Position numbers and translations under genes: made by a program
Notes under the pieces: model-generated
Databases searched by the model: none
What the model was told of the DNA's origin: nothing
Seen by the model: only the letters and a program-made list of their open reading frames with translations
Origin: a virus
Direction: 5' to 3' (one strand)
DNA: 35,889 nt
IMG/VR virus record: IMGVR_UViG_3300034418_013486
Span: 1-35,889 of that record
Shown: positions 3,789 to 31,070 of the stretch, one piece after another
How the letters are laid out: every line of letters starts with the position of its first letter
How positions within the stretch are numbered: the first letter of the stretch is position 1

Positions 3789-4216
3789 AAAAATATCCAT
3801 CAAAATATTCTAATGGAAAAGATGTAACGGCAGCTCAATATATAACCGAAATGATTTGCGAAAGATTAGCAAAAAAAGAAAAAAAAGATTTACATTATAG
3901 GTTTTGGCTGTCTAAAGAATGGGAAAAACAGTATAAAGGACAAATAGGACAAGCGAATAAATTACTAAAAAAATATGACGCTAAAGACATAATAAATGCA
4001 TTGTTGTCTAAGGCAGGATCAAAAATTTATTCCTTGCGAGCGCCTCATCTTTGTGGTATCATAGATAAATACATATCGTCTAAACCCAAACAAACAACAA
4101 CACAAAAAAAAGAAATCGAAAGACATCTATTTGATGTTGGTATACAGCATAAAAAAGATAAAAAAAATGTACTAGACCTTTTAAAGGATATAGATAATGG
4201 TAGCAATACAAGATAG
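3785..4216 (+). CDS. Unrecognised helical basic protein upstream of recA
   Basis: A 143-residue, Lys-rich, mostly helical protein. The middle (about residues 38-95) has a distinctive pattern, FWLSKEWEKQYKGQIG then LLKKYDAKDIINALL, then IYSLRAPHLCGIID, which I associate with small phage proteins of unknown function next to recombinase genes. No zinc site, P-loop or membrane segment. It overlaps the preceding gene by four bases and the recA-like gene by 20 bases. A role as a loader or accessory for the recombinase or replisome is possible but unproven. Confidence 0.7.
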   Translation: MKKYPSKYSNGKDVTAAQYITEMICERLAKKEKKDLHYRFWLSKEWEKQYKGQIGQANKLLKKYDAKDIINALLSKAGSKIYSLRAPHLCGIIDKYISSKPKQTTTQKKEIERHLFDVGIQHKKDKKNVLDLLKDIDNGSNTR

Positions 4217-5201
4217 TATAAAAAAAGACTTTGGTGCTGGCATCATGTTAAATGCTAATAGTATTATAGACAAAAAAACTATTACCATACCAGTAAGTCC
4301 AGCATTAGATTTAATTTTAAATGGAGGAATTCCAGAAGGAAGTTTTGTTGTCTTGACAGGTCAGCCGAAATGTGGTAAGACTACTACTAGTCTAGACTTT
4401 GCTGCTACTGCACAGAAAGAAGAATATTCAGCAGAACAACCCCGAACTGTATATTATTTAAATATCGAAGGAAGACTTAAAAAAAGGGACCTAGAAGGAA
4501 TACCTGATCTTGATCTTGATAGATTTAATATCATTGGGTCGCAGACAGGGAAAATACTTCATGCCGAAGAATATCTACAAATAGCAGAAAGAATTATTAA
4601 TGAGGATCCAGGATGTGTTATGATCATCGACTCTTATTCTGCTCTATGCACAGAGGCTGAAATTACTAGCGATATGAATAAAATGCAAAGAGCGGACGGA
4701 GCCAAATTATTAGCAAAATTTTGTAGAAAAGTAGCAAATGTGATACCAGTAAATCGCAATATTGTTATTGGTATTACTCATTTGATGGGTAATCCAACAG
4801 GCTATGGTGCAGAATTTAAAGAGAAAAGCGGACAATCTATCGCATACCAAACAGACATTAAGTTAAGAGCCAAATCTTATAAGCCGTGGCTTTTAGGTAC
4901 AGACAACACCCAAATAGGGCAGCAAGTAGAGTGGCAAACTATATGCTCTGCATTAGGGCCGCCAGGAGGCAATATTACGTCTTTTATTAGGTATGGTAAA
5001 GGTATAGACAAAGAAACAGAGCTAATCAATTTATCTGTGGATTTGGGTTTGATAAATAAAGGTGGAGCTTGGTATAGTTTGAGTTTTCTAGATGACAAAA
5101 CTAAATTCCAAGGCACAGAAAAAGTTAGAAATTTTTTGATAGAAGACAAAGAAGCATTTAAACAGCTATATGAATCAGTCAAGCAAACTATGGGTGTATA
5201 A
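4197..5201 (+). CDS. RecA/UvsX-like recombinase
   Basis: A 334-residue RecA-fold strand-exchange ATPase. Walker A GQPKCGKTT is at residues 55-63, the catalytic Glu lies in LNIEGR (E91, matching the E96 position of E. coli RecA), Walker B VMIID ends at D145, and the ITHLMGNPTGYGAEFKEKSG stretch around 193-212 corresponds to the strand before and the DNA-binding loop L2. It would coat ssDNA and catalyse homologous pairing for recombination-dependent replication and repair. It is shorter than bacterial RecA and lacks the acidic C-terminal tail, as in phage UvsX-type proteins. Its Vsr-like and UvsY-positioned neighbours fit a recombination module. Confidence 0.92.
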   Translation: MVAIQDSIKKDFGAGIMLNANSIIDKKTITIPVSPALDLILNGGIPEGSFVVLTGQPKCGKTTTSLDFAATAQKEEYSAEQPRTVYYLNIEGRLKKRDLEGIPDLDLDRFNIIGSQTGKILHAEEYLQIAERIINEDPGCVMIIDSYSALCTEAEITSDMNKMQRADGAKLLAKFCRKVANVIPVNRNIVIGITHLMGNPTGYGAEFKEKSGQSIAYQTDIKLRAKSYKPWLLGTDNTQIGQQVEWQTICSALGPPGGNITSFIRYGKGIDKETELINLSVDLGLINKGGAWYSLSFLDDKTKFQGTEKVRNFLIEDKEAFKQLYESVKQTMGV

Positions 5202-6081: not shown

Positions 6082-6448
6082 CAAAGACGATATTAAGCAA
6101 TTAATAGCAATACTTCAAAAAGGATTATCTGACGAAGATGAGACAGAAACTCAAGACGAAGTACAAAAAGAGGAAAACGGATTTTCGAATATCAAAACCA
6201 AAACAAGCAAAATTCAACATAATACTACTAATAAATTTTTAGAATTAGGTTTTGACAGATTGCATAAAGAAGATATTGCTATAGATAAAGCTTTACAAAA
6301 AAATCCTCCTACCCCAAGGAGACGAAAACTATCTACAATAAATGTAAGATGCAGGGTGTGCGGCAAGCAAGAATCTATCAGTTCTTCTTTATTATATGAA
6401 TCGTCAGATAGATATAAATGCAATAAATGTTGCGCTTCTCCAGGGTAA
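6071..6448 (+). CDS. Zinc-ribbon protein, 125 aa
   Basis: A small protein of unknown function with three parts: an N-terminal helix, an acidic then Lys/Gln-rich linker, and a C-terminal zinc ribbon, CRVC at about 94-97 and CNKC/C at about 115-119. The segment NPPTPRRRKL before the ribbon is basic. AAGGTG just upstream of ATG 6071 gives a good ribosome-binding site; the start overlaps the preceding gene by 11 bases. The architecture suits a nucleic-acid-binding adaptor in the helicase/recombination module; no enzymatic motif is visible. Confidence 0.72.
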   Translation: MALDKDDIKQLIAILQKGLSDEDETETQDEVQKEENGFSNIKTKTSKIQHNTTNKFLELGFDRLHKEDIAIDKALQKNPPTPRRRKLSTINVRCRVCGKQESISSSLLYESSDRYKCNKCCASPG

Positions 6449-6459
6449 TTAATCAAATT

Positions 6460-7926
6460 ATGATACTATCAGATCCATCAGCGGAAAGAGCATTATTATC
6501 TACTATATGTAAATATGGCGATAAGATTTTCTTAGAAATTTCAGATTTAGTTTCAGAAAATACCTTTACTATAGATAGCAATAAAATAATATTTTCTTGC
6601 TTAAAACATATTTTAGAAAAAAATTCAAATACTACTATTGATATAGGTATAATATATTCAGCGTCTAAAGATCTTGGATTAGATAAGATTCTGCAAAAAA
6701 AAGAAGAAACTCAACACCTAAAAGCTATTCTAGATTTTCCAGCAAACGAATCGAACGCAATAACATTTGCTGCGAAAATCAAAAAATTAGAAATAGCGAG
6801 AAAATTATATTCAAAATTAGAAGATACTAAAGATAAAGTTTTGCAGGTTTGCGGAACAGAAAGTATCACCGAAATACTTAGTATAGCTGAAGATAGTTTA
6901 TTTGATTTTTCTGCTAATTTAACAGATACAGATAATTCGCCTTCTCATGTGTCAAATGGTCTTGATGACTATATAAATAATCTTATAGAAAATCCTATTA
7001 ATCAAGTAGGCATATCTACAGGATTTCCAGCATATGATTCTGCCATTGGAGGAGGACTAAGAAAAAGCACTATTAATGTCATAGCCGCTAGACCAAAAAC
7101 CGGAAAAACTTTATTAGCAGATAATATGGGTTTTCATATAGCTAATAAATTAAAAATACCCGTATTAAATCTAGATACAGAGATGACAAAAGAAGACCAT
7201 CTTAACCGTTTAATAGCTATGATTACAGAAATAGAAATATCTAAAATAGAAACTGGTAAATTTACAGAATCTACAATAAATAATGAAAAAGTCAATAAAG
7301 CAATTCAAGAGCTAAAAGATACACCCTTGTTTTATAAACCAATACCGGGTAAGCCATTTGAAGAACAATTATCTATTATGAAGAGATGGCTGATAAAAGA
7401 GGTGGGTTTAAATACTGATGGCACCGCTAAGCCATGCGTTATATTTTATGATTATCTAAAACTAATGGATACACAAGGCATGTCTCAAGACATGAAAGAA
7501 TATCAGGTTCTAGGTTTTATGATGACAAGTTTACATAATTTTGCATGTAAATATAAAGTGCCGATTGTCGCATTTATACAGTTAAATCGTGATGGAATTA
7601 CTAAAGAAACAACCGATACAGCTTCTGGTTCGGACAGAATTATTTGGCTATGTAGTAATTTCTCTATATTTAAAAGAAAAACAGATGAAGAAGTAGCTGA
7701 AGATGGAGCCAGTTCTGGTAATAGAAAACTTATACCAGTAATTAGTAGGCATGGTCCTGGCATAGAAGACAATGATTATATAAATTGTCATATGAGAGGT
7801 TGGTGTGCTAAAATAACGGAAGGTAAAACTAGGATAGAAGTAGCAAATTCAGGGAGTTTTACACAATCAAATGACGACTCATTTAATGTCGAAACATCCG
7901 AAGATGAAAAAATCGACTTCATTTGA
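6460..7926 (+). CDS. DnaB-type replicative helicase
   Basis: Hexameric 5'-3' fork helicase. The start at ATG 6460 gives 488 residues beginning MILSDPSAERALLSTI, which matches the usual DnaB N-terminus (P-x-s-x-E-x-x-LL); an in-frame ATG at 6427 would add 11 residues but has no ribosome-binding site. The N-terminal domain runs to about residue 155, and a RecA-fold motor follows with Walker A AARPKTGKT at 209-217, the LNLDTEM strand after it, a CVIFYDYLKLM Walker B and VPIVAFIQLNRD (arginine-finger/sensor region). No intein. It overlaps the primase gene by up to 56 bases, consistent with a helicase-primase pair. Confidence 0.9.
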   Translation: MILSDPSAERALLSTICKYGDKIFLEISDLVSENTFTIDSNKIIFSCLKHILEKNSNTTIDIGIIYSASKDLGLDKILQKKEETQHLKAILDFPANESNAITFAAKIKKLEIARKLYSKLEDTKDKVLQVCGTESITEILSIAEDSLFDFSANLTDTDNSPSHVSNGLDDYINNLIENPINQVGISTGFPAYDSAIGGGLRKSTINVIAARPKTGKTLLADNMGFHIANKLKIPVLNLDTEMTKEDHLNRLIAMITEIEISKIETGKFTESTINNEKVNKAIQELKDTPLFYKPIPGKPFEEQLSIMKRWLIKEVGLNTDGTAKPCVIFYDYLKLMDTQGMSQDMKEYQVLGFMMTSLHNFACKYKVPIVAFIQLNRDGITKETTDTASGSDRIIWLCSNFSIFKRKTDEEVAEDGASSGNRKLIPVISRHGPGIEDNDYINCHMRGWCAKITEGKTRIEVANSGSFTQSNDDSFNVETSEDEKIDFI

Positions 7927-9028
7927 TCAAAATAAAATCAAAATTATTTGTGATCAATTGTGTGACGATATAGAAGATCTATTGGATAGTTTAGAATTAG
8001 AATATAAAATGAATCATAGATTTGTTTCTATGAGCTGCCCAATACATGGCGGAGATAATGATAGTGCTGTTAACATATATCATGTAGGAGACACCTATAG
8101 AGGAAATTGGAAATGCCGAACACACAGATGTGAAGAAACATTTAAATCTTCTATCATAGGTTTTATTCGTGGAGTAATCTCTAATAGAAAATATAATTGG
8201 AACAAAACAGGAGACACGACATGCTCTTTTAAAGAGGCTTTAGAATATGCAACAAAATTTTTAGATGTTGAAATAAACAAAATAAAACTTCCCAAACATT
8301 ATAAAGATAAAAATACATTTATTAATAACGCAAAAATATTCACAAAAAGTACTAATAGTCATAAATATTCTATAACTAAAGATTTAATTCGAAAAAGCTT
8401 AAATATACCTAGTAAATATTTTATTGACAGAGGTTTTAGTTGCGATATACTAGATAAATATGATGTGGGAGACTGTCATAATGCATCTAAAGAAATGTAT
8501 AATAGGGCCGTTGTTCCTGTGTATGACATAGAGAACCGTTATATGGTAGGATGTACTGGCAGAAGTTTTTTTGAAAAGTGCTCAGAATGCAAATGCTATC
8601 ATGATGGGAATTGTCCAAAAAAAGAATACTTGTGGAAGTATAGCAAATGGAAACACAGCAATGGATTTAAAACTCAGGAACATCTTTATAATTTTTGGTA
8701 TGCAAAAGATTATATAACAGAAACAGGTTCCGTTATCATAGTTGAAAGTCCTGGTAATGTATGGAAACTAGAAGAATGCGGCATACATAATAGCGTAGCT
8801 ATATTCGGCACCAATCTCACAGACAGACAAAAAACCATATTGGATATGAGTGGAGCTATGAATATTATTGCTATAATGGATAATGACGAAGCTGGAATAA
8901 AAGCAGCAGAAAATATTAAAAACAAATGTAACAAAACCTATAATATTAGAAATATTACTATATCAAAAAACGATGTGGCGGACATGACTATTAACGAAAT
9001 TGAACAAGAAATAAAGGCTTTTATATGA
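7871..9028 (+). CDS. DnaG-type primase
   Basis: Makes RNA primers at the fork, likely with the overlapping helicase. A CHC2-like zinc site is formed by C56, H59 and C82-RTHR-C87. A second cysteine group (C237, C240, C242, C248) lies in the catalytic core. The Toprim domain shows the catalytic Glu in IIVESPGNV (E292) and the DxD in IMDNDEAG (D337, D339). At about 385 residues it is shorter than bacterial DnaG and lacks the C-terminal helicase-binding domain. Start choice is uncertain: ATG 7871 has GGGAG about 14 bases upstream; ATG 7886 and 7904 would shorten it without touching the zinc site. Its stop overlaps the dNMP kinase start by four bases. Confidence 0.88.
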   Translation: MTTHLMSKHPKMKKSTSFDQNKIKIICDQLCDDIEDLLDSLELEYKMNHRFVSMSCPIHGGDNDSAVNIYHVGDTYRGNWKCRTHRCEETFKSSIIGFIRGVISNRKYNWNKTGDTTCSFKEALEYATKFLDVEINKIKLPKHYKDKNTFINNAKIFTKSTNSHKYSITKDLIRKSLNIPSKYFIDRGFSCDILDKYDVGDCHNASKEMYNRAVVPVYDIENRYMVGCTGRSFFEKCSECKCYHDGNCPKKEYLWKYSKWKHSNGFKTQEHLYNFWYAKDYITETGSVIIVESPGNVWKLEECGIHNSVAIFGTNLTDRQKTILDMSGAMNIIAIMDNDEAGIKAAENIKNKCNKTYNIRNITISKNDVADMTINEIEQEIKAFI

Positions 9029-9621
9029 CAAAAATTATAGCATTTGCTGGAAGAAAACAATCTGGCAAAACCACTTCCGCAGAATTATTAGTAGATTACT
9101 ATAAATATGCGCTAAATATAGAAGAAGGCATAAAAATATATAACTTCGCAGATACTCTGAAAAGATTTTGTATAGACACATTAGAATTAACATATGATCA
9201 ATGCTATGGTTCTGATGAGCAAAAAAATGAACTTGTGGATTGTTATTGGGATAATGGTACACAAATGACTGCCAGAGAGGTTATGCAATTTGTTGGTACT
9301 GATGTTTTCCGTAAAATGAAAAATAATATTTGGTCAAATGCCACGATCAATCTGATCAATAAAGAAAAGCCCAAATTGGCCATAATAGCTGACTGTAGAT
9401 TTCCTAATGAAGTTGATGCTATTAAAAAATCTGGGGGATTTGTGATAAAATTAATGAGAAATCTGTTTAATTCTGATCATGATAGTGAAACAGCATTAGA
9501 CCTAAAAAACTATAACCATAAAAATTTTGATTTAGTTATATTCAATCAGAATTTATCTATAGAAGAAAAAAATCATGGCATAATCAATTTTGCCAAAAAG
9601 AAAGGATTACTACAATTATAA
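9025..9621 (+). CDS. Deoxynucleoside monophosphate kinase
   Basis: Phosphorylates dNMPs to dNDPs, complementing the ribonucleotide reductase in dNTP supply. The product has 198 residues; the P-loop GRKQSGKTT is at residues 9-17, and the segments TAREVMQFVGTDVFRKM, NIWSN and LAIIADCRFPNEVDAI are characteristic of phage dNMP kinases of the T4 gp1/T5 dnk type (the last carries the LID/acceptor-side Asp and Arg). Coupled to the primase by an ATGA overlap, with AAAGG upstream. Substrate range (which dNMPs) cannot be told from the sequence. Confidence 0.85.
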   Translation: MTKIIAFAGRKQSGKTTSAELLVDYYKYALNIEEGIKIYNFADTLKRFCIDTLELTYDQCYGSDEQKNELVDCYWDNGTQMTAREVMQFVGTDVFRKMKNNIWSNATINLINKEKPKLAIIADCRFPNEVDAIKKSGGFVIKLMRNLFNSDHDSETALDLKNYNHKNFDLVIFNQNLSIEEKNHGIINFAKKKGLLQL

Positions 9622-10649
9622 TTACATATTTTAGAAGTTCTTCCTACAATTGTCACTCAATGTGTGAGCAACAATATTTCATAGAATATGTTTTGGGATT
9701 GAGAGGACCTTCTAATAAAAAAGCAGATAAAGGTACCATAGTACATAAAGTGCTAGAAATATTGGCTTTTATTAAACAGACACAGCAGAACAATAAAAAA
9801 AGTTTTAATGACGACATAGTAGGTAAAATTAATGTTAATAATTATTCTATAGATTCTATTTTTGAAAAAACATATGCTCACTATATCAAAAATTCTATAC
9901 ATGAATGGACAGACCGAGATAAATCTGATTGTTTAAAATGGACAGAGAAAACTTTGGATTTTAATGATGGTATGTTTAATCCCTTAAAAAGAGAAATAGT
10001 GTGTCCAGAACAAAGGTTTGATTTTGTTATTGATAAGCCTTGGGCTAAATATAAATATGATACGGATGAAGGATTGCTGGAAGGAAAGTTAGCATTAAAG
10101 GGTACTATCGATTTAATAACAAAAATTGATGATAGTTTTTATGAGGTTATAGACTGGAAAACAGGCAAAAGATTAGATTGGGCAACAGGTAAAATAAAAA
10201 CCCAGGCAAGTCTAGAGAACGATCCTCAGCTGAGAATTTATCATTACGCTGTCAGTCATTTGTATCCGGATATAGATAACATCATGATTACTATAAATTT
10301 TATTAATGATGGAGGGCCGTTTTCTATATGTTTTCAAAAAAAAGACCTAATACAAACAGAGGATATGCTGAGGAAAAAATTTGAAAAAATCAAAAGCGTT
10401 AAAAGGCCATACTTGAATAAAAGTTGGAAATGTAGTAAATTATGTCATTTTGGCAAAACAACATTCGAAGACACTCTCATTAATCCGATAGAAGAATACA
10501 GAGATAATCAAACCACTAAGAATGGTGAAATTATGTCAAAATGCGAACAAATATGCCATGACATAGAGTTGCAGGGTATGGATTCTGTGATACAATCATA
10601 TAAGCACCCCGATCACACTTTTGGATTCTATAAACCTCCCGGAGAATAA
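9615..10649 (+). CDS. RecB/Cas4-like PD-(D/E)XK nuclease
   Basis: A nuclease of the RecB/Cas4-like superfamily. Counting from ATG 9660: H29 in GTIVHK, D151 in GTIDLI, D165-W-K167 in the VIDWKTGK strand, and the Q190-LRIY-194 motif of this superfamily; a Cys pair (KCSKLC) lies near the C-terminus. The coding frame is open upstream of ATG 9660 and reads ITYFRSSSYNCHSM, which is exactly the conserved N-terminal motif (S-x-S-...-C...Y-x-x-Y) of such nucleases. No ATG/GTG/TTG exists there, so an ATT start at 9615 (AAAGGA at 9601-9606, 8-base spacing), or ATA 9618/ATT 9621, is proposed. The gene ends directly before the polymerase ATG. Likely acts in recombination or end processing. Confidence 0.82.
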   Translation: MIITYFRSSSYNCHSMCEQQYFIEYVLGLRGPSNKKADKGTIVHKVLEILAFIKQTQQNNKKSFNDDIVGKINVNNYSIDSIFEKTYAHYIKNSIHEWTDRDKSDCLKWTEKTLDFNDGMFNPLKREIVCPEQRFDFVIDKPWAKYKYDTDEGLLEGKLALKGTIDLITKIDDSFYEVIDWKTGKRLDWATGKIKTQASLENDPQLRIYHYAVSHLYPDIDNIMITINFINDGGPFSICFQKKDLIQTEDMLRKKFEKIKSVKRPYLNKSWKCSKLCHFGKTTFEDTLINPIEEYRDNQTTKNGEIMSKCEQICHDIELQGMDSVIQSYKHPDHTFGFYKPPGE

Positions 10650-12536
10650 ATGTACACTCCATTACATGTTCATACCCATTATAGTTTACAGTTAGGACTG
10701 TCTAAACCTAGTGACATTGCCGCAAAATGTAAGCATTTTGGCATAAAGTCGTGTGCCATTACTGATAATGGTAATATTGCCGGAACAATTTCTTTTTATA
10801 AAGAGATGATCAAAAATGACATAAAGCCAATATTAGGATGTGAATTAAATATATGTACAGAAAATGCAGATATTAAAAATATAAACAACGATAAATTATC
10901 ACGCATTACTTTATTACCTAAAAATAATGATGGCTGGATCAATTTAATTGAAATAGTTTCAAAAACTAATTGCAAGGATTTTTTCTATCATAAACCAAGA
11001 ATAGACTTAGACAATCTAAAGAATATGGTTAAAGATCAAAATCTCATATGCATCACAGGATATTATAGATCTTCTTTATATGATATAATTTATCAAGAAA
11101 ATGAATTAATTGCCAATTGGGAAAGTTTAGCTATCAACCATATTGAAAGTATATCTAATATATTTGGCAAAGATAACGTGTTTATAGAGATACAAAGATT
11201 TAATGATTTTTGCTTAAATTTATCCGAACCGATAAGACAATTATCACAACAAAACAACTGGAAAAGAATAGCAGGAATAGATAGCTATTATTGTAATAGC
11301 GAAGATGCGATAGATCATAAAATACTATTATGTAGCGGATTAAAAACCACATTGCCAGAAATATCAAAAAAGATCATAAATAATATAGATACGGGCGTCA
11401 ATCACTTCTTCAACTCTGATCAATATTGCTTACTATCTAACGAAAAAATTTCTGAATTATACGACACAGAAGAGATTGATAATACGCGATTGGTAGATAA
11501 TTTATGTGAAAGCTTTTCGCCTCTTAATAAGCCAAATTTGCCAAGTTTTAAGTATCCTGATAATTATGAAAGCGATGCCGAATACTTAAAGCAGCTATGT
11601 AGAGATGGCTGGCGAAAAAAAATCAGTAACGTTATCGATAAGAATAAACAGCAAGAATATGTAGATAGAGTTAAATATGAACTAGAAATATTACAAGGTG
11701 CTAATTTATCTAGCTATTTTTTAATAGTCAGAGACATATTGGAATTTATTAAAAATAATAATTGGTTACACGGACCCGGTAGAGGAAGTGCCGCAGGATG
11801 TTTGGTGTCTTACCTCATTGGTATTACTAGTATAGACCCTATTAAATATAATTTATTATTTGAACGTTTTTATAATGCTGGTAGAAATACCAAAGACAGG
11901 GTTTCAATGCCAGATATTGATGTGGATGTTCCTATAGACAAGAGAGATATTATTATTAATTATATCAAAGATAAATATGGACATGAGAATGTAGCACAAA
12001 TGATTACTTTTACTACATTAAAGGGTAGAGGAGCATTAAAAGAAGTGCTGCGTGTTCATAACAATATTTCGTTCGAGGAAATGAACAACATTACCAAACA
12101 TATCCCAGACGAGGCCAAAATCGCAGATGAGCTGCAAGAAATAAAAGAAGAGGAAGGCACAGCCTCAATTATTAAATGGGCGCTAGAAAACAACCCAGAG
12201 AAGTTCAAGGAGTGGTGCGAAATAGACAGTTCTGGACAATTAACCGGCCCACTTGCCAAACGCTTTGAACAAGCTATTAGAATTGAAGGAACCAAGTTTC
12301 ATCAGTCCAAACATGCTGCTGGCATAGCGATATCTGCCACAGCGTTATCAAAAATATGTCCTATGATATTTGACACGAAAACAGAACAATTAATTTCTGG
12401 ACTAGAAATGAATGATCTAGAATCTTTAGGGGTAATAAAATTTGATATATTGGGAATCGCTTTATTGGATAAAATTATGTACATAAATGAATTAACCAAA
12501 AAAAATAACGGAGAAACTAAAAATGAAATTTTCTGA
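10650..12536 (+). CDS. dnaE: DNA polymerase III alpha, N-terminal half (PHP + palm)
   Basis: First half of a split family C replicative polymerase, 628 residues. The PHP domain begins at once (HVHTHYSL at 6-13, ITDNGNIAG at 37-45, GCEL at 63-66), with metal ligands apparently intact, unlike E. coli DnaE. The palm follows: GPGRGS at 375-380, PDIDVD with D422 and D424, and IKFDILGI with D599, matching the three catalytic Asp of E. coli (D401, D403, D555). HQSKHAAG is at 551-558. The frame ends 29 residues after D599, in the loop that leads to the fingers, with no intein-like sequence. Ribosome site GGAG at 10641-10644. It needs the product of 13393-14928 to be a complete polymerase. Confidence 0.93.
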   Translation: MYTPLHVHTHYSLQLGLSKPSDIAAKCKHFGIKSCAITDNGNIAGTISFYKEMIKNDIKPILGCELNICTENADIKNINNDKLSRITLLPKNNDGWINLIEIVSKTNCKDFFYHKPRIDLDNLKNMVKDQNLICITGYYRSSLYDIIYQENELIANWESLAINHIESISNIFGKDNVFIEIQRFNDFCLNLSEPIRQLSQQNNWKRIAGIDSYYCNSEDAIDHKILLCSGLKTTLPEISKKIINNIDTGVNHFFNSDQYCLLSNEKISELYDTEEIDNTRLVDNLCESFSPLNKPNLPSFKYPDNYESDAEYLKQLCRDGWRKKISNVIDKNKQQEYVDRVKYELEILQGANLSSYFLIVRDILEFIKNNNWLHGPGRGSAAGCLVSYLIGITSIDPIKYNLLFERFYNAGRNTKDRVSMPDIDVDVPIDKRDIIINYIKDKYGHENVAQMITFTTLKGRGALKEVLRVHNNISFEEMNNITKHIPDEAKIADELQEIKEEEGTASIIKWALENNPEKFKEWCEIDSSGQLTGPLAKRFEQAIRIEGTKFHQSKHAAGIAISATALSKICPMIFDTKTEQLISGLEMNDLESLGVIKFDILGIALLDKIMYINELTKKNNGETKNEIF

Positions 12537-12702
12537 ATTATCTGTTGGCGACCAGTTCAAATATAATGGGAAACTATATACCAAAACAGAACCTAAAAAA
12601 GTATCATGCTGTAAAACTCTTAATTCTGTTGATTTATCTAACAATAAACCAATTATGATAAAACCAACTCACGAAGTAGAAAAGGTGGAAAGTGCTAACT
12701 AA
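12523..12702 (+). CDS. 59-residue phage protein between polymerase halves
   Basis: A small gene starting at ATG 12523 with GGAG at 12510-12513. The product starts MKFSELSVGDQFKYNGKLYT, continues with K-E and a SCC motif (C29, C30), and ends in VEKVESAN. The start with GD-F-x-Y-x-G-x-x-Y-x-K reads like a small beta-barrel or SH3-like fold seen in short phage proteins of unknown function. It overlaps the N-terminal polymerase gene by 14 bases and the exonuclease gene by 11, so it is an integral part of the polymerase operon. Function unknown; whether it binds the polymerase halves or exonuclease is untested. Confidence 0.7.
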   Translation: MKFSELSVGDQFKYNGKLYTKTEPKKVSCCKTLNSVDLSNNKPIMIKPTHEVEKVESAN

Positions 12703-13396
12703 TAATATTTGCGTATTCGATTTTGAAACAGACGGTTCTAATCCGAACGAATGCAGTCCTGTTCAGCTATCAGCCGTTATGGTTGATTCTCAAAGATTGG
12801 AAATAATAGATAATTCAGAGTTTAACGTGTACTTAAAACCTGAAAAAATAGAAGATAATAAAAAAGCTAATATATCCATATATAATGATAGTGATATTTT
12901 AGATTGGCACGGTAAAATAAAACAAATTTCTAAAGAAGAAGTATTTGATAATTGGCTTAATTATCCAGATCAAAAGCATAGTTGGCAACAATTTGTATCC
13001 TATTTAGATAATTATCATAAACATTACAAAAAAGCTAAGACACAGTTTTCTGCCCCAATTGCGTGTGGCTACAATATAGTCAAATTTGATATGAAAATTG
13101 TGAACAGACTTAGTCAAAAATATGGCAATGTTAATAAAGAAAATAATACTAAATTATTTCATCCAAGGGATCAAATAGATTTAATGCTTATAACTTGGTT
13201 GTGGTTTGAAAGTTTATCTGACGTCAAATCTTTAGCTTTAGACAATCTAAGAGATTATTTAGGCATAGATAAGACAAATGCTCATGATGCAGTAAAGGAC
13301 GTTAAAGATTGCGCTAATATGCTTATAAGATTTCTAAAATTACACAGAAATTTGGTATCAAAAATAAAGTTCAGAAAGGCTTTTGCTAATCAGTGA
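12692..13396 (+). CDS. DEDDh 3'-5' proofreading exonuclease (epsilon-like)
   Basis: A 234-residue DnaQ-fold exonuclease, presumably the editing subunit for the split polymerase around it. Exo I motif VFDFETDG (D9, E11) is at the N-terminus, the Exo II Asp lies in YNIVKFDMKIV, and Exo III is NAHDAVKDVKDC with the His-x4-Asp spacing of the DEDDh class. The start is GTG at 12692, preceded by AGGTGGAAA, overlapping the small gene by 11 bases. Its own stop shares GTGA with the start of the second polymerase gene, so the two are translationally coupled. A Pol III epsilon role is inferred from location and family; a general DEDDh nuclease would be the alternative. Confidence 0.88.
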   Translation: MLTNNICVFDFETDGSNPNECSPVQLSAVMVDSQRLEIIDNSEFNVYLKPEKIEDNKKANISIYNDSDILDWHGKIKQISKEEVFDNWLNYPDQKHSWQQFVSYLDNYHKHYKKAKTQFSAPIACGYNIVKFDMKIVNRLSQKYGNVNKENNTKLFHPRDQIDLMLITWLWFESLSDVKSLALDNLRDYLGIDKTNAHDAVKDVKDCANMLIRFLKLHRNLVSKIKFRKAFANQ

Positions 13397-14928
13397 TAAA
13401 TTTCGAAGATATCAATCTTAATTGTCAAAAAACTTGGCATTTAATTGGTGAAGGAAATACCAAAGGAGTGTTTCAATTAGAGTCTAGATTGGGGCAAAGC
13501 ATGTCTAAAAAGCTAAAGCCACAAAACATAGAACAATTGGCTGCCTTAATTAGTATTTTACGTCCAGGATGTTTAGAAGCGGTTAGAGATGGCAAAACAG
13601 TAAGTAATCATTATATAGACAAAAAAAATAATGCAGAATCTGTTGATTATTTCCATATCGCTCTAGAGCCAATATTGTCTGAAACTTTTGGCGAAATGGT
13701 ATACCAAGAACAAGCTATGCAAATATGTCAACGTATTGCTGATTTTGATCTTTCAGAAGCTGACATGTTAAGAAAGGCTATTGGTAAAAAAAATCCAGCA
13801 GAAATGTCTAGAATTAAGTCTATCTTTATCGAAAAAAGCAAAACTTCTGGGATAGTAAATGAAAATGAAGCAGAGCAAATATTCGGATGGATTGAAAAAA
13901 GTCAAAGATACTCCTTTAATAAGAGTCACGCTATCAGCTATGCTTTTAATGCTTATGTGTCAGCCTATGCCAAGGCTCATCATACTATAGAATTTTTTAC
14001 GTCTTATTTAAGATTTGCTAAAGACAAAATAGACCCGATGAAAGAAATTAATGAATTAGTAAATAATGCTATCGAGTCTAATATAAAAATATATAGACCT
14101 GATTTTAGAAAAAACAATGCTGATTTTGAGCTAATAGATGACACAATATATTTTGGTTTAACTAATATCAAAGGGGTTGGTAAATCAGTATATGAAAAAA
14201 TACAAAAAATCATAACAGAAAATCAAATAGACATAAGTACAATAGATCATATTAATATAATCCTATTTATTATATTGGATAAAATAAATTCAACAGGAGC
14301 CAAAAACTTAATATCTGTTGGAGCATTTGATTACATGAAAATATCTAGAAAAAAATTACTCTTTTATTTAGACATTATAAGCAATCTCAGCAGCAGAGAA
14401 AAAAATATAATATTAGAAAATATAGATATCGAAAATAATCTTGATGAAATATTGGAAAAATTGCTACCGAATTTAAATAAAAACCGTAAGACCAAAATTT
14501 CTTCATTAATTAGCGCATTAAAAAATCCAGCATACAACTTGGAAGACGATTATGAATGGATATCTACGACAGAAAAGCGCTTATTGGGTGTGCCAATTAC
14601 TTGTTCGGTTATAGATGGCCGTAATACAGAATCGGCAAATTGTGATTGTCAAAGACTTAATAAAGATAAACTTTTACCAAAACATATCATATTAGCAGCA
14701 GAAATACATACAATAAACATTGTAAAGACAAAAAAGGGTAAGAATCCGGGCAAAGAAATGGCTTTCATCAAAATTAATGACGGTACAGGCTCTAGCGACA
14801 TAATCGCTTTTCCTGCGGAATTTGAGGATTTTAAACATTTACTATACGAAGAAAACACAGTAATGTTTAGCTTAGAGCAATCTAAAAATAAAGACTCAAC
14901 CTTTATTAAGAAGTGCTGGCAGATATAA
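13393..14928 (+). CDS. dnaE: DNA polymerase III alpha, C-terminal half (fingers, HhH, OB)
   Basis: Second half of the split polymerase, 511 residues, GTG start at 13393. Fingers motifs: GVFQLESR at 25-32, RPG at 57-59, VYQEQAMQI at 103-111, RKAIGKK at 127-133 and FNKSHAISYAF at 175-185. A helix-hairpin-helix is at TNIKGVGKS (257-265), and an OB fold ends the protein (IILAAEIHTI then AFIKINDGTGSSDIIAFP). It picks up where the first gene stops, so little or no sequence is missing: 628 + 511 = 1139 residues against 1160 for E. coli alpha. The C-terminal tau-binding domain beyond the OB fold is absent and no clear clamp-binding motif is visible. Confidence 0.92.
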   Translation: MINFEDINLNCQKTWHLIGEGNTKGVFQLESRLGQSMSKKLKPQNIEQLAALISILRPGCLEAVRDGKTVSNHYIDKKNNAESVDYFHIALEPILSETFGEMVYQEQAMQICQRIADFDLSEADMLRKAIGKKNPAEMSRIKSIFIEKSKTSGIVNENEAEQIFGWIEKSQRYSFNKSHAISYAFNAYVSAYAKAHHTIEFFTSYLRFAKDKIDPMKEINELVNNAIESNIKIYRPDFRKNNADFELIDDTIYFGLTNIKGVGKSVYEKIQKIITENQIDISTIDHINIILFIILDKINSTGAKNLISVGAFDYMKISRKKLLFYLDIISNLSSREKNIILENIDIENNLDEILEKLLPNLNKNRKTKISSLISALKNPAYNLEDDYEWISTTEKRLLGVPITCSVIDGRNTESANCDCQRLNKDKLLPKHIILAAEIHTINIVKTKKGKNPGKEMAFIKINDGTGSSDIIAFPAEFEDFKHLLYEENTVMFSLEQSKNKDSTFIKKCWQI

Positions 14929-15004: not shown

Positions 15005-15394
15005 ATGAATTTAGTTATTTTGCGTGGAAATTTAGCTAGAGATCCGGAATTAAGGCATGTTAATATTAATTCTAGATCGACTGCTGTTGTAAATTTTACT
15101 GTTGCTACGTCAAGAGAATTTACTAAGCAAAACGGAGAAAAAGACAAAGTAACAACATTCGCTCAATGCGAAGCTTGGGACAGTGGAGCGGAAGCTATCG
15201 CTGAAACTTTGTCAAAGGGCGATTTAGTTATGATAGAAGGATCTTTAAGAAACGACAGTTGGGAAAAGGACGGGGTGAAAAGATCCACAATGAAAGTTAG
15301 AGTTAACAATTTTGCCAAATTAAATAGAGGTAAAAAAAATTCTAAACAAGAAGAAACCGTAGAAGATAAAGAAGAGGCTATAGCCGCTTTTTAA
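15005..15394 (+). CDS. ssb: Single-stranded DNA-binding protein
   Basis: A 129-residue SSB that coats ssDNA at the fork and in recombination. The OB-fold starts MNLVILRGNLARDPELR and shows VNFTVATSREF, a WDS segment, KGDLVMIEGSLR and SWEKDG, all typical of bacterial/phage SSB; the C-terminus is short and acidic, ending EEAIAAF, a plausible protein-interaction tip though not the DDDIPF of bacteria. Start ATG 15005 has AAGGAG at 14993-14998, a perfect ribosome site. It is flanked by its own strong promoter and a terminator, so it is probably expressed as a separate high-level unit. Confidence 0.94.
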   Translation: MNLVILRGNLARDPELRHVNINSRSTAVVNFTVATSREFTKQNGEKDKVTTFAQCEAWDSGAEAIAETLSKGDLVMIEGSLRNDSWEKDGVKRSTMKVRVNNFAKLNRGKKNSKQEETVEDKEEAIAAF

Positions 15395-22612: not shown

Positions 22613-25600
22613 CTAGGTAGCTGTTGGAGGATCGCTGATAGTAGGAGCATCACTGGTAGTCGGAGGAGCATCACTGGTAGTCGGAGGAGCATCACTGGTA
22701 GTAGGAGGCGAGCTAGTTATTGGGGGCGTAGGTGATGTTGCTATTGTAGTAGTATATATTGGAGGACCGCTACTAATCGGAGGAGTCGAAATTGGTGGTG
22801 TGCATGGTGGTGGTGTGCATGGTGGTGGTGTGCATGGTGGTGGTGTGGGTTGTGTAGGAGGTGTAGAATTACATTCTGTTAAATCAAACCATTTCAAACA
22901 TCCTGCTCCGTCGTGTCCTAATATTTGTTCTACTGAAGGATTATAATTTGATAGAGTTTGTAAACATTCTAAACCGCACCAGCAGTCAGGAGTAGGCGTG
23001 GGCGGCGTAGTTGGAGTAGGCCCAGTAGGAGTGGTTGTTGTTGGTGTGGTTGTTGTTGGTGTGGTTGTTGTTGTTGTGGTTGTGGTTGTGGTTGTGGTTG
23101 TCGTAGTGCAAATAATGTCACATGGTTCATTTGGGTCTTTATAGGCCCTATTGCTTTCTAATACAATATATCTATTATCATCATAATATGCATAAACCAT
23201 ATCGCATTGACATAAATCCACACCCAAAAAGTCATATACAACAATTTCAGTATTTTCCATACTTACTTTTACATTTTCACCATTTGGGCCACTAATACTA
23301 TAATGTTCGTAAAATCTAATACCATCTGCTTCTGGATTAATTAGTTCAGCAGTAGCGCTACCATATGCTGGTAATGTTTCTTTTAGTCTTGCTACTACAA
23401 TCTTATTTGGGGAAGGACAAGTCCATACTCCTCTTTCTCTATCAAATCTTAAATCTATGGGTCCAACAGGCCAGCTTTTTGGATACTGTAACCAATTTTT
23501 CATAAATTTGTCAGTTAAATTTTCTTTCCTAAATTCTCCAATTTGGGCATGGTTATATCCATCAGCACTATTGGGTATTGGTTTTCCGCTAGTATCATAT
23601 CCCCATCCTTGTAAAACTAAAGGTCCTCTAAGAGAGGGAAATCTAAAGTTTTTAAATTGTTGTCTTATAAATTCATCTGTATTTTTATTGTTATAAGCAT
23701 TAGGCTCATTTATTATTTGATTATCTGGTGATGTATGAGTTATTTGATAATCTATATGATCTTGACCAAATGCTATCGAAGATATCACAAAACCTTTTTC
23801 ACTTCCATTTCTGCGATCATCCCAACCTTTAACGATATCATTACTTTCTTCTCCTACCAAATTTTTAACAGAAAGCATAGGGTTTAAATATCGTTGATTT
23901 ATCTGTAACGCATAGCAATTATTATTTTGTGATTTTATGTTTAGTAATTTAAAAGGAGGTATTTCATCTCTGGTCTTTGATGGTATAGGATATCCAGGAT
24001 CATTTGATTTATCTCTATCATAAGACCCTACAGCGTCCCATTCAATAAATTGGCCATTATTTTCACATCTCCTAGCAAACCTTGGAATTCTAGCATCATT
24101 TGTCCAGCCTGTATTACGTATTAATTTGTCTCCATCTAATTTAAAAGAATTTGGTTTATTGTCACTGTCATCATTAGAATATTTTTCATATTCTGTTATT
24201 TTTGGATTTTTGTTTGCTCCTCGTAAAGATACTGGTAAAAAGAACCCATCCAAGCCCATGCCGCTAAGTTGGTGGTATGTATTTTGTATGTATTCTACAC
24301 TATAGGCTTTGTCAGTATCTGCAAAAGTATATAACCTTTTAGGAGGAGGATCAAAAGTCTTTGGAGTAAATTCTATAGGAGGAGGAGTATTGCATACTAC
24401 TTTTTTACAATCAGGTTCAAATGGCGGATAATTTTCAGGAATTGATTCGTACGGTTCTTTTGATTCGTAGTCCTGTACATCTGTGTCTAAAGACTCAGAA
24501 GGATTGACCAATAAATCATAACCAGACCACATTATATTATGCGTGGTAGATTCTTTTTGTACTTTTGGACCTTTATAAATATCTAAAGACGGAAAAACAC
24601 TATTAATTCTCTCGCTATTTAAAAGTTTTAATCTATAATTTTGACTAGTATTTCTTGTGTTAGACTCTAAAGACTTTAAATAACTATTTAAATATTTTCT
24701 GTCTTGTATAGACTGCTTCCAAGCTTCTGTAATATATTTTTCAGGTCTACTGAACCTGGGACTATAAGTAGAAAAATTATAAGTAGTATTAAATCCGCCA
24801 GACCCAAATTCAACACTTATATCTGTTAATAATGTTGGACCAAGCTCATCAGAACTATAACAGTCTTTGTCGTCTACCCAGTGAGCAAGACAATAGCATG
24901 GTAACCCAGCAACAGTTACTCTTCCTTTTTCTAGTTTTTGTAAGTCTTTTGGATATGATTTTGCTATAGATTGGGCAAATTTTTCCATTTCGTCATAGGC
25001 ATAATCCACAGGTAAGCTCGGCTTATTATGTTCTATAAAATTCCAAGGGGCAACATCATCTTCAGACACAACATCAACCCCTCCAGCATCAGAATATCCA
25101 GAATAAGCAGGCCCATATTTGTATAGGTTGCTTTTCATGGGTATGGCTGCGGCTTCAGGAATAATACAAAACGGGTTGGTCTGGCCCAAATTTAGTAAAC
25201 TAGTATTAGATCTAGCACCATGAACATTATTATCAGTAGGCCATGTGCAATATTTTGAGTAAGGAAAAAATATGCTACCAAATTTTCCTAAAACGCCAAC
25301 AAAAGGTTTTATAATATGATCTTTTAACAATGATTTTTTATTGTTTAAGTCATTATAATATCCTCCTATGCTTTTCATTATAGCATCAAAAGTAATAAAT
25401 CCTTGAGCATTACTAGGCCCAAATCTAGTCATGGGAACTTTGTCAGAAAGTGTAACATGTACCCAAGTGCCGTATTTGTCCACATAAAATCTTTCTTCAA
25501 CAGAACACTTCATATACAAATTTTGTATAGGATCTGTGGGCTCATTCTCAAATCTTAAACTCTCAACAGCAAAACTATCTGGACTAAGTTTGGATATATC

Positions 25601-26707
25601 CATTTGCCAGTTTTGACAATTGTCTTCAGAATCAAGAAACTTTGGATATTTAATAGTTTCATATATTCCACTACATGCGCTTAATCCAGATGCATATGGT
25701 CCTATTTTCACAAAGGAACCTATTTTGCCTTCGTCAGTGGACACCCAATCTAAATCTTGAGATCCAATGATAGTTAAATCTTCTTTATTAGGAAATCCTC
25801 CAGCATTGTCTATGACGTCACTAACATAATAACCTTGAGAAGAACCGTCTTCATCAATAAAATAAGGATAATCAAACGATGGATAATCTCCATTCTCATC
25901 TTTGATACATAAAGTATTTAAAGGGTATGATATCGAATCATTTTTTTTAGGTACACTATCTCCTATTCTCACCAAAAATTGTTTACCATAATAAGTATCA
26001 TGAATATTTTTAAGCCATTCATAACAAAATATAATCTTTTCTGACTTTGTCATTCTAGCTAACTGTTGGCAATTAGTTTCATTAATACTTGAAGTATATT
26101 GGCTAGCATCTTCGGTTTTTTGTTGATCTTTACTAGTTCTAGGAGGATTAATTAAAAATTTTTGAGCAAGAGAATATAATCCGGAGACTACACCATTCAG
26201 CATAGAGTCTATGGCTTTAAATCCTTCAGACTGAATATCTTCTAATGATAAATCAAGATCTTTTAAAACCCAATAACCAAAGCTCAAACCCTCTTGGTCG
26301 GTTACTGGGGTGTTCAGTTTAGTTTTATCAATTATTATTAATTCTGTTTGTAAAAAAGCTATCCAAGATTCCCAAGTGGCCGCAGCTAACAACTCATTTT
26401 CTAACAGATCGAAAGTATCTGTAGCATTTCGACCAAATGTTTGAGACAAAATACCGCTGTCTACTAATGCTCGTGCGGAAAAATCTCTTATAATAAAACC
26501 TTTTTTTATATAATCTTCGTTAATTTCAGGGGTGTAATATAGTGATTTTAATTTTCCTGGTAATTTATCGTCAGCAGATAAGATTTCGGTAGGAGAATAG
26601 GTGGAATGACCAAAGAACATCCGAATATTGCTACAACCTGTTGGAGGCGCAATCTCTGTGCAAGGCGTTGGTGTAACATCACTAAAATCGCATCTACAAT
26701 CTGTCAT
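22613..26707 (-). CDS. Large tail tip / fibre protein with mucin-like C-terminus
   Basis: A 1364-residue protein, last in the tail operon and therefore likely a tip, side fibre or receptor-binding protein. ATG 26707 has AGGAA upstream. The N-terminus starts TDCRCDFSDVTPTPC; residues to about 1175 are largely beta-rich, with many Tyr/Trp and Gly, and without signal peptide or membrane segment. The last 190 residues are Thr/Pro/Ser/Cys-rich: 16 consecutive Thr, TTTTP repeats, a 5-residue PPPCT repeat (three copies), and a 7-residue PPTTSDA repeat (three copies), ending ISDPPTAT. A small Cys/Trp domain (CWCGLECLQTL...) sits between the Thr tract and the Pro/Cys repeats. Receptor-binding role is inferred from position. 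Confidence 0.75.
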   Translation of the reverse strand: MTDCRCDFSDVTPTPCTEIAPPTGCSNIRMFFGHSTYSPTEILSADDKLPGKLKSLYYTPEINEDYIKKGFIIRDFSARALVDSGILSQTFGRNATDTFDLLENELLAAATWESWIAFLQTELIIIDKTKLNTPVTDQEGLSFGYWVLKDLDLSLEDIQSEGFKAIDSMLNGVVSGLYSLAQKFLINPPRTSKDQQKTEDASQYTSSINETNCQQLARMTKSEKIIFCYEWLKNIHDTYYGKQFLVRIGDSVPKKNDSISYPLNTLCIKDENGDYPSFDYPYFIDEDGSSQGYYVSDVIDNAGGFPNKEDLTIIGSQDLDWVSTDEGKIGSFVKIGPYASGLSACSGIYETIKYPKFLDSEDNCQNWQMDISKLSPDSFAVESLRFENEPTDPIQNLYMKCSVEERFYVDKYGTWVHVTLSDKVPMTRFGPSNAQGFITFDAIMKSIGGYYNDLNNKKSLLKDHIIKPFVGVLGKFGSIFFPYSKYCTWPTDNNVHGARSNTSLLNLGQTNPFCIIPEAAAIPMKSNLYKYGPAYSGYSDAGGVDVVSEDDVAPWNFIEHNKPSLPVDYAYDEMEKFAQSIAKSYPKDLQKLEKGRVTVAGLPCYCLAHWVDDKDCYSSDELGPTLLTDISVEFGSGGFNTTYNFSTYSPRFSRPEKYITEAWKQSIQDRKYLNSYLKSLESNTRNTSQNYRLKLLNSERINSVFPSLDIYKGPKVQKESTTHNIMWSGYDLLVNPSESLDTDVQDYESKEPYESIPENYPPFEPDCKKVVCNTPPPIEFTPKTFDPPPKRLYTFADTDKAYSVEYIQNTYHQLSGMGLDGFFLPVSLRGANKNPKITEYEKYSNDDSDNKPNSFKLDGDKLIRNTGWTNDARIPRFARRCENNGQFIEWDAVGSYDRDKSNDPGYPIPSKTRDEIPPFKLLNIKSQNNNCYALQINQRYLNPMLSVKNLVGEESNDIVKGWDDRRNGSEKGFVISSIAFGQDHIDYQITHTSPDNQIINEPNAYNNKNTDEFIRQQFKNFRFPSLRGPLVLQGWGYDTSGKPIPNSADGYNHAQIGEFRKENLTDKFMKNWLQYPKSWPVGPIDLRFDRERGVWTCPSPNKIVVARLKETLPAYGSATAELINPEADGIRFYEHYSISGPNGENVKVSMENTEIVVYDFLGVDLCQCDMVYAYYDDNRYIVLESNRAYKDPNEPCDIICTTTTTTTTTTTTTTTTPTTTTPTTTTPTGPTPTTPPTPTPDCWCGLECLQTLSNYNPSVEQILGHDGAGCLKWFDLTECNSTPPTQPTPPPCTPPPCTPPPCTPPISTPPISSGPPIYTTTIATSPTPPITSSPPTTSDAPPTTSDAPPTTSDAPTISDPPTAT
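22644..22706 (-). repeat. 3 x 21-bp tandem repeat in fibre gene (PPTTSDA)
   Basis: Three near-identical 21-base units in register, encoding a seven-residue Pro/Thr/Ser/Asp/Ala motif near the fibre C-terminus. Multiples of three keep the frame, so copy-number change would alter length but not reading frame. Confidence 0.9.
22799..22843 (-). repeat. 3 x 15-bp tandem repeat in fibre gene (PPPCT)
   Basis: Three exact 15-base units (tgtgcatggtggtgg on the + strand) encoding a five-residue Pro-rich, Cys-containing repeat. In frame, so expansion and contraction are tolerated; partial copies flank it. Confidence 0.92.
23018..23107 (-). repeat. Thr/Pro low-complexity tract (16 Thr plus TTTTP units)
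   Basis: On the + strand this is a run of ggttgt/gttgtt-type triplets. On the coding strand it gives ACN codons for 16 Thr in a row, then TTTTP units and a PTP-rich tail before a Cys-Trp-Cys motif. Mixed ACA/ACC codon use suggests slippage is partly interrupted. Confidence 0.9.
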
Positions 26708-26716
26708 AATAAATTC

Positions 26717-28204
26717 CTATGGATTACAATCTGACGGATAAGGAGTAGGTGTAACAAAAAACGCATCATAAGCGCCAATACTACCCGGACTATTTCTTAT
26801 AGAACAATGCGGTTGTAGTCTAGTTTCACACAGACCATCATCTGTTATTCTATCAAGCTCATCTACTGCATATAATGACCAAGTCGCTCCTTCTATAGTT
26901 AAACATTGTTCGTAAGTAACTTGAGCGATACCTCCTTCAGCAAGACAGCATATACCATTATCAAAATTGATTTGCGGCTCACACATAGTTTGATAAGAAT
27001 AATCTCTTACTGTTGTAAGGTAAGATATATTATCTCCAAAAACAACTCTTTTATTTTTAGCAGAAGATCCTGCTATCTCTTCTCCATAATTTTTACTAAT
27101 AACAATATCATCAGCGGTAAGATTTGCTATAAAAGAAAACAAAGACTTTTCTTTTGTTTGAAATTTGTAGTTTATTGGCAAGACTTCGAACTGATTTTGA
27201 TTATTAATATGCATAGTAAAGCCATAACCAGACTCTTCTGCTGCTATTGTTATTAACTCTAATACATTTGACTCGTTATCTTTTATTCGTAGTTCATCAG
27301 ACATAACATTTATCAATTTTGTCAAATTTAACTTTAAACCAGCTCCAGATACCGGAATAGAAACACATTCATAATTAAGGTTTTCTAATATCGTTTTTAG
27401 TTTAGATCCTTTGCGACTCAAACTTCCAGACATCATAAAATCCTCGCATTGTCTACCACTACCACAAGTATTATCAACTACTGACTTTTCAGCTTTAGTA
27501 TTAACGTTAATAGCATTTCCTAAAAACATATTTGGTAAGCGAATATAGTTATCATTAAGAATAACGGATATGCCGCTCAATATATTTCTTCCATCACTCA
27601 TAGATACTCTATATTTGTATCCAGAAGAATCTTCATTATAGCTATGATTATTTAATATTCCCCTGAAGCAAAATGCCCCCATATTAAATGTATATACATA
27701 ACCAATTTTACCTTCATATTTACTTTCTGGTATTGAGCATAAAGATTCGCAATTGCATGGGTCATCATCACATGTTTTGCCAGCCACCCAAGTACCATCC
27801 AGTTGAGAGCATTCCAACTCACTAATTTCTAAACAATCTCCAGCAGTTAAGCAACATACTCCACTTGGATTAGATATGTTTGTCACGGGGGGACAGGTAC
27901 GCTTAGGAACAACTATATCCACTGTTAATGTAGATTCAGAAGCGCCAAAACCTATAGTTGAACTAAAATTAGAAACAAAACCGCCTAAAAATTGAACGTC
28001 TAATTGATCAAAGACTTCTTCACAATCTAAACAAGTGACCGCACCATCTAAACAAGGAGTAGGAGTAGAAGCACACGGCTTGTCAGGATAGCCGCATATA
28101 AAACAATCATCTACAGATGGATTAGGGTCACAAGGCAAACAAAAGCCATCGTCACACAAATCTGGCGTTACAGTAACTTTTAATGGGTCATTAAATTGAG
28201 ACAT
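26717..28204 (-). CDS. Baseplate hub / Tal-like tail protein with two GxCCL Cys modules
   Basis: A 495-residue Cys-rich tail protein. Position (tape measure, Dit-like, this, fibre) and a segment with LINVMSDELRIK followed by VLELITIAAEESGYGFTMHI (about 296-333) resemble the gp27/GpD-type hub that joins tail tube and tip. The N-terminal 60 residues hold several CxxC and TPTPC motifs. Inserted are two modules starting GVCCL (about 115-152) and GICCL (417-459), each with later conserved Cys and a GxTW stretch. The C-terminus ends TPTPYPSDCNP. There is no clear ribosome-binding site; the gene follows the preceding one closely, so coupled translation is likely. Hub identity is inferred. Confidence 0.65.
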   Translation of the reverse strand: MSQFNDPLKVTVTPDLCDDGFCLPCDPNPSVDDCFICGYPDKPCASTPTPCLDGAVTCLDCEEVFDQLDVQFLGGFVSNFSSTIGFGASESTLTVDIVVPKRTCPPVTNISNPSGVCCLTAGDCLEISELECSQLDGTWVAGKTCDDDPCNCESLCSIPESKYEGKIGYVYTFNMGAFCFRGILNNHSYNEDSSGYKYRVSMSDGRNILSGISVILNDNYIRLPNMFLGNAINVNTKAEKSVVDNTCGSGRQCEDFMMSGSLSRKGSKLKTILENLNYECVSIPVSGAGLKLNLTKLINVMSDELRIKDNESNVLELITIAAEESGYGFTMHINNQNQFEVLPINYKFQTKEKSLFSFIANLTADDIVISKNYGEEIAGSSAKNKRVVFGDNISYLTTVRDYSYQTMCEPQINFDNGICCLAEGGIAQVTYEQCLTIEGATWSLYAVDELDRITDDGLCETRLQPHCSIRNSPGSIGAYDAFFVTPTPYPSDCNP

Positions 28205-28209
28205 AATAT

Positions 28210-29301: not shown

Positions 29302-29304
29302 GTC

Positions 29305-31059: not shown

Positions 31060-31070
31060 AAATTAACTCC

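What the first reader, a model, noticed from the sequence alone, without database searches (positions are those of the whole stretch)
10650..14928. Replicative DNA polymerase III alpha encoded as two separate genes
PHP+palm (three catalytic Asp: D422, D424, D599) and fingers+HhH+OB are on two polypeptides. The break lies in the palm-fingers linker, not at the cyanobacterial split-intein site (that site is intact in the second half, near SFNKSHA). No intein-like sequence is present at either end, and total length (1139) is close to one intact alpha. The catalytic core would therefore be assembled non-covalently from two proteins. I know of no described system with this break point, although I could not search.
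Basis: partly seen in the sequence, partly recalled or inferred. Interest (0 to 1): 0.78.

Follow-up and report, generated by a model that had tools for sequence, protein, structure and literature searches.

The report
Phage replicative polymerase made as two proteins
A large group of uncultured phages makes its only recognisable DNA-copying enzyme as two separate proteins that together match one bacterial replicase, with the gene for a proofreading-type enzyme always lying between them; this suggests that a normally one-piece enzyme core can be a stable two-part assembly, although scattered phage precedents for split versions exist.

Summary
The window encodes a DnaE-type Pol III alpha as two genes: N (10650-12536: PHP, palm, thumb) and C (13393-14928: fingers, HhH, OB). 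The break is in the palm-fingers linker and no core residue is lost: by fold, N covers E. coli alpha 5-583 and C covers 583-1073.

The split is old and fixed, not an assembly error. In all 241 related IMG/VR loci with both halves (151 distinct), N and C are in different ORFs with the exonuclease between; none is fused. Both halves keep their key residues under strong purifying selection. Twenty contigs of 93-233 kb carry one palm gene, one fingers gene, and no PolA or PolB. The window has no intein or intron at the break.

Most likely the halves assemble non-covalently, with the exonuclease, into the phage's replicase; assembly is inferred, not shown. The principle is not wholly new: a minimal split Pol III alpha is described in jumbo phages, Microbacterium EF phages have a two-gene alpha broken elsewhere, and Rossellomorea phage phiT1 has this same break. 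Verdict: new variant of a known kind.

The parts
10650..12536 (+). dnaE-N: PHP, palm (D422, D424, D599) and thumb half of Pol III alpha, 628 aa
   Evidence: Pfam PHP and DNA_pol3_alpha; AlphaFold pLDDT 88.8; superposes on E. coli alpha 5-583, Z 38.4
12523..12702 (+). small ORF S, 59 aa, unknown function; start overlaps the end of dnaE-N by 14 bases
   Evidence: read; conserved at this place in most loci of the window's subclade; no Pfam match
12692..13396 (+). X: DnaQ-like DEDDh 3'-5' exonuclease, probable proofreading subunit, 234 aa
   Evidence: Pfam RNase_T; phrog_192 DNA polymerase exonuclease subunit, E 2e-20; D, E, D, H, D conserved in 102 sequences; between the halves in 241 of 241 loci
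13393..14928 (+). dnaE-C: fingers, HhH and OB half of Pol III alpha, 511 aa; GTG start overlaps the stop of X by 4 bases
   Evidence: Pfam DNA_pol3_finger and HHH_6; AlphaFold pLDDT 90.3; superposes on E. coli alpha 583-1073, Z 22.2
15005..15394 (+). single-strand DNA-binding protein, next gene of the replication block
   Evidence: Pfam SSB; conserved downstream of dnaE-C
9660..10649 (+). PD-(D/E)XK nuclease directly upstream of dnaE-N
   Evidence: Pfam PDDEXK_1; conserved upstream in the clade
6427..9621 (+). DnaB-like helicase (6427-7926), Toprim primase (7871-9028) and dNMP kinase (9025-9621) of the same block
   Evidence: Pfam and PHROG matches

Best explanation
This is a fixed, two-gene DnaE-type DNA polymerase III alpha of a clade of uncultured phages. 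dnaE-N supplies PHP, palm (all three metal-binding Asp) and thumb; dnaE-C supplies fingers, HhH and OB. The chains are made from one cluster of overlapping genes (N, small ORF, exonuclease, C). They most likely assemble non-covalently across the native palm-fingers interface into one active replicase, with the DnaQ-like exonuclease encoded between them as its proofreading subunit, by analogy with epsilon of E. coli. Shown here: gene structure, exact complementarity of the halves, conservation, catalytic residues, purifying selection, and no other recognised replicative polymerase in 20 long contigs. Inferred: physical assembly, polymerase activity, and the exonuclease acting in the same complex. 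Origin, also inferred: fracture of a contiguous dnaE in the clade's ancestor, perhaps by a mobile element such as those that still interrupt dnaE in relatives.
For: N and C tile one alpha without gap or overlap. All 241 loci with both halves (151 distinct) have N and C in different ORFs with X between; none is fused. Catalytic Asp and the fingers core are invariant. dN/dS is 0.02-0.07 for N and C. Both halves fold confidently on their own. One palm gene and one fingers gene, and no PolA or PolB, in 20 contigs of 93-233 kb. Position within a replication block.
Against: No binding, complex or activity was shown; a two-chain model could not be predicted with the tool. The long contigs are not certified complete, so a further polymerase or use of the host's cannot be excluded. 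Some relatives have a much reduced PHP part. Distance correlation between N and C was no better than expected from shared ancestry.
Confidence: 0.85

Rival explanations
1. The split is a sequencing or assembly error, or a decaying pseudogene of a contiguous dnaE.
For: Frameshifted dnaE is seen in one relative (L065/G002) and possibly in some annotated phages.
Against: The same break with an intact exonuclease gene in it in 241 of 241 loci from independent assemblies; strong purifying selection on both halves.
Confidence: 0.01
2. The two halves are joined covalently after all, by trans-splicing of proteins (split intein) or of RNA (split intron).
For: Split inteins join parts of dnaE-C in two relatives (L172, L269) and in cyanobacterial DnaE; inteins are common in this clade's dnaE.
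Against: No intein-like sequence at the end of N or the start of C in the window or in the ends printed for about 100 distinct pairs; gene overlaps of 4 to 23 bases between X and C leave no room; no Rfam intron in the window or in the relatives searched, though Rfam is not exhaustive.
Confidence: 0.03
3. The halves no longer form a polymerase together: one half or both have taken another role (for example PHP nuclease, or DNA binding), and the phage is copied by the host replicase.
For: Assembly is not shown. In two subclades the PHP part of N is much reduced (N of 500-533 aa).
Against: The palm Asp residues and the fingers core are conserved together; both halves are always present, next to the exonuclease; no other phage polymerase was found; the cassette sits among helicase, primase and SSB genes.
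Confidence: 0.08

Closest known systems
Single-chain DnaE-type Pol III alpha (E. coli, Thermus; PDB 2hnh, 2hpi, 5fku)
   Same: Homologous PHP, palm, thumb, fingers, HhH and OB in the same order, same catalytic residues, same folds
   Different: Two chains instead of one, with an exonuclease gene between; the region matching E. coli alpha beyond about 1073 (tau-binding C-terminal domain) is absent
Rossellomorea phage phiT1 (PV767480.1) gp20 + gp18
   Same: Alpha broken at the same palm-fingers linker, in an isolated phage, no intein annotated
   Different: Only a 49-aa ORF lies between, no exonuclease; single record; the tree places it apart from this clade, though a common clade is not rejected (AU p 0.249)
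Minimal split Pol III alpha of group 2.2 jumbo phages (Iyer et al. 2021, PMC7824862)
   Same: Phage Pol III alpha catalytic core in two proteins, proposed there to reconstitute one enzyme
   Different: There a minimal core without other Pol III domains, in distantly located genes, accompanying a family B polymerase; here nearly full length, in one cluster, with no PolB found
Two-gene alpha of Microbacterium cluster EF phages (PMC7302621; records PQ114741.1, ON755183.1)
   Same: Alpha on two neighbouring genes, noted in the literature
   Different: Break is between PHP and palm, leaving palm and fingers on one chain
Cyanobacterial split-intein DnaE
   Same: dnaE encoded in two parts
   Different: There the parts carry intein halves and are spliced into one chain at the FNKSH site; in the window that site is intact and no intein is present

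Membership tests
C-family (DnaE-type) DNA polymerase III alpha | PHP, palm, fingers and HhH domains homologous to DnaE | tested here: met
   Pfam matches over the cut-off; folds; OB by fold and a sub-threshold Pfam hit
C-family (DnaE-type) DNA polymerase III alpha | three catalytic Asp of the palm | tested here: met
   D422, D424, D599 invariant in 87 non-redundant relatives
C-family (DnaE-type) DNA polymerase III alpha | DNA-dependent DNA polymerase activity | not testable with these tools
   needs an assay
Conventional single-chain DnaE | palm and fingers on one polypeptide | tested here: not met
   different ORFs in the window and in 241 of 241 loci
Split-intein DnaE (cyanobacterial type) | intein halves at the junction | tested here: not met
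   no intein-like residues at the ends of N and C in the window or in the ends printed; FNKSHA site intact in the window
Minimal split Pol III alpha of group 2.2 jumbo phages (PMC7824862) | minimal core without other Pol III domains, distant genes, family B polymerase present | tested here: not met
   PHP, HhH and OB present, genes in one cluster, no PolB in 20 long contigs of relatives
DnaQ-like DEDDh proofreading exonuclease (X) | DEDDh active-site residues | tested here: met
   D10, E12, D133, H198, D203 conserved in at least 95% of 102 sequences (numbering of that reference); RNase_T and phrog_192 matches
DnaQ-like DEDDh proofreading exonuclease (X) | binding to alpha and removal of mismatched primer ends | not testable with these tools
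   inferred only from gene position and family

The most novel reading that the evidence does not exclude
The replicase core is an obligate three-subunit N-exonuclease-C complex in which the DnaQ-like protein, always encoded between the halves, helps hold palm and fingers together, so that polymerisation and proofreading are coupled through reversible subunit contacts rather than through a single alpha chain.
Probability: 0.2. Interest if true: 0.75.

Novelty: new variant of a known kind. Interest (0 to 1): 0.55.

Why it matters
Palm and fingers of Pol III alpha are normally parts of one chain. Here evolution has kept them on separate chains through a whole, diverse clade in which no other polymerase was found, so the enzyme apparently tolerates, or exploits, non-covalent assembly across its active-site cleft. 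That makes questions about fingers movement, exchange of halves and coupling to proofreading directly testable, and offers a natural split polymerase for engineering. It also suggests how a gene broken by a mobile element can become fixed as a multi-subunit enzyme.

Tried and rejected
Assembly error, pseudogene and frameshift: rejected by conservation and selection. Intein or intron at the break: none found. Mirror-tree correlation as evidence of interaction: N-C r 0.941 against 0.888-0.935 for other pairs, so uninformative. Host from genome contigs: the N query found nothing, and the C query found only distant contiguous DnaE genes. Cultured relatives through the neighbouring nuclease and the 1598-aa protein: no INPHARED match. 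Independence of the phiT1 split: favoured by the tree but not significant. The PDB fold comparison was a second look at Foldseek's matches only; families not listed there are not excluded. Literature: searches for split DnaE in phages turned up PMC7824862 and PMC7302621; most subscription papers and two reviews of viral replicases I asked for were not held, so an earlier description cannot be excluded. The INPHARED survey looked at the rows listed, not at all of the about 1,360 matching records.

Full report
WHAT IS THERE. The window is an IMG/VR virus record of 35,889 bases, with GC mostly near 30%. On the + strand lies a replication block: UvsX/RecA-like recombinase (4197-5201), DnaB-like helicase, Toprim primase, dNMP kinase, PD-(D/E)XK nuclease, dnaE-N, small ORF S, exonuclease X, dnaE-C, SSB. 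dnaE-N (10650-12536) has PHP and DNA_pol3_alpha; dnaE-C (13393-14928) has DNA_pol3_finger, HHH_6 and an OB fold. What it did not report is that two further genes, S (12523-12702) and a DnaQ-like exonuclease (12692-13396), stand between the halves. Neighbouring genes overlap: N and S by 14 bases, S and X by 11, X and C by 4.

BREAK POINT. Against Taq alpha, N aligns up to 640 and C from 644. Against Salmonella DnaE as annotated, N ends at 570 and C starts at 568. AlphaFold models of the halves, each built from 22 sequences of this clade, are confident (pLDDT 88.8 and 90.3). N superposes on E. coli alpha 5-583 (2hnh, Z 38.4, 569 residues, 3.5 A). C superposes on 583-1073 (5fku, Z 22.2, 450 residues, 8.8 A; the large rmsd would fit domain movement). 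The only part of N under pLDDT 50 is its last seven residues. So the break falls in a flexible linker and no part of the core is missing; only the C-terminal domain of cellular alpha (tau-binding in E. coli) has no counterpart.

CONSERVATION. Five IMG/VR scans gave 260 loci of the clade. Of these, 241 hold both halves. In all 241 (151 distinct sequences) the halves are in different ORFs and X lies between them; the other 19 are cut by contig ends. Identity to the window falls to about 40-45% for aligned representatives. D422, D424, D599 and many fingers residues are invariant. The exonuclease keeps its DEDDh residues. In closely related pairs dN/dS is about 0.02-0.07 for N and C and at most about 0.05 for X. 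Twenty long contigs (93-233 kb) each carry one palm gene and one fingers gene and no family A or B polymerase; the palm is in two pieces where an insertion sits (G016, G018, G019), and broken by frameshifts in G002. No beta clamp was found either. The contigs are not certified complete, so absences are not proof.

MECHANISM. The best reading is a non-covalent two-chain alpha with X as its proofreading subunit. Gene structure, complementarity, selection and the lack of another recognised polymerase are shown; binding and activity are inferred. In 50 of 81 distinct loci X and C overlap or are at most 9 bases apart, with start codons chosen by a simple rule, which suggests coupled translation. 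S is conserved in most of the window's subclade, but in L037 a different 72-aa ORF takes its place, and in L217 and L218 N and X are nearly adjacent. The constant cassette is therefore N-X-C.

ORIGIN. dnaE in these phages is a frequent target of mobile elements. There are cis-inteins at RPGC|LEA in C and at GPGRG|SAAG in N. In L172 and L269 there are split inteins with a free-standing endonuclease-like gene at FNK|SHA. In L276 and relatives an insertion with an endonuclease-like ORF sits at the PDIDVD motif. A plausible, unproven history is that such an element broke the gene at the palm-fingers linker, the two-chain form worked, and the break was fixed.

WHAT IS KNOWN. Split phage Pol III alpha is not new as a principle. 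Iyer et al. (PMC7824862) describe a minimal split version in group 2.2 jumbo phages, in distant genes and beside a family B polymerase. PMC7302621 notes two genes in Microbacterium cluster EF phages; by alignment, annotated two-gene Microbacterium phages break between PHP and palm. Bacillus phage Jayan is broken just before the catalytic DID motif. KLEB27-3 has an HNH gene in its break, and Alicyclobacillus phage KKP_3916 has alpha in four pieces. The nearest match is Rossellomorea phage phiT1, broken at the same linker with a 49-aa ORF between. Trees put it with Bacillus-type phage polymerases, away from this clade, but an AU test does not reject a common clade (p 0.249). What appears new is the clade-wide, fixed split of a nearly full-length DnaE at this linker with the exonuclease gene inside.

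VERDICT. Observation confirmed; interpretation right in the main, with its novelty claim reduced by precedents. New variant of a known kind.

Noticed in passing
L172:11562-13956 and L269:11231-13659: dnaE-C is itself broken at FNK|SHA (the cyanobacterial split-intein site) by what looks like a split intein: an N-part with Hint/intein domain, a free-standing endonuclease-like ORF (DUF559-like in L172, LAGLIDADG in L269), then a C-part. Alpha would come from three genes, two of them joined by protein trans-splicing.
   Followed up: partly
L050:8001-10265; also L024, L026, L032, L034, L051, L272: In-frame intein with HNH-like residues inside dnaE-C at RPGC|LEA.
   Followed up: partly
L098:4950-6420; also L105: Intein-like insertion in dnaE-N at GPGRG|SAAG with a 269-aa ORF in another frame inside it.
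   Followed up: no
L276:9272-10374; also L274, L277, L281, L282: About 1.1-kb insertion with a 298-aa endonuclease-like ORF at the catalytic PDIDVD motif of dnaE-N; may be an intron, but no Rfam match.
   Followed up: partly
L019:11256-12236: DUF1559 prepilin-like gene (PF07596) with an N-methylation motif between X and dnaE-C, next to a ThyX-like ORF. From general knowledge DUF1559 is typical of Planctomycetes, a possible host hint.
   Followed up: partly
L053:7929, L067:7914, L071:7911, L087:7911 and others (start of dnaE-C): Many dnaE-C proteins have a short N-terminal extension with a CGC motif, such as ..FQYSCGCSFDI.., absent from the window; function unknown.
   Followed up: no
L162-L173 and L190-L195 (dnaE-N): The PHP part of dnaE-N is shortened by about 100 aa or more in these subclades (N of 500-533 aa).
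   Followed up: no
L285 (OQ846916.1 56963-65433): Alicyclobacillus phage KKP_3916 carries Pol III alpha in four pieces with other ORFs between, all annotated as hypothetical proteins.
   Followed up: partly
22613-35867 (- strand): Five large ORFs (363-1598 aa) on the minus strand with no PHROG or Pfam match; the largest has no INPHARED match either. Possibly structural genes of an undescribed phage lineage.
   Followed up: partly
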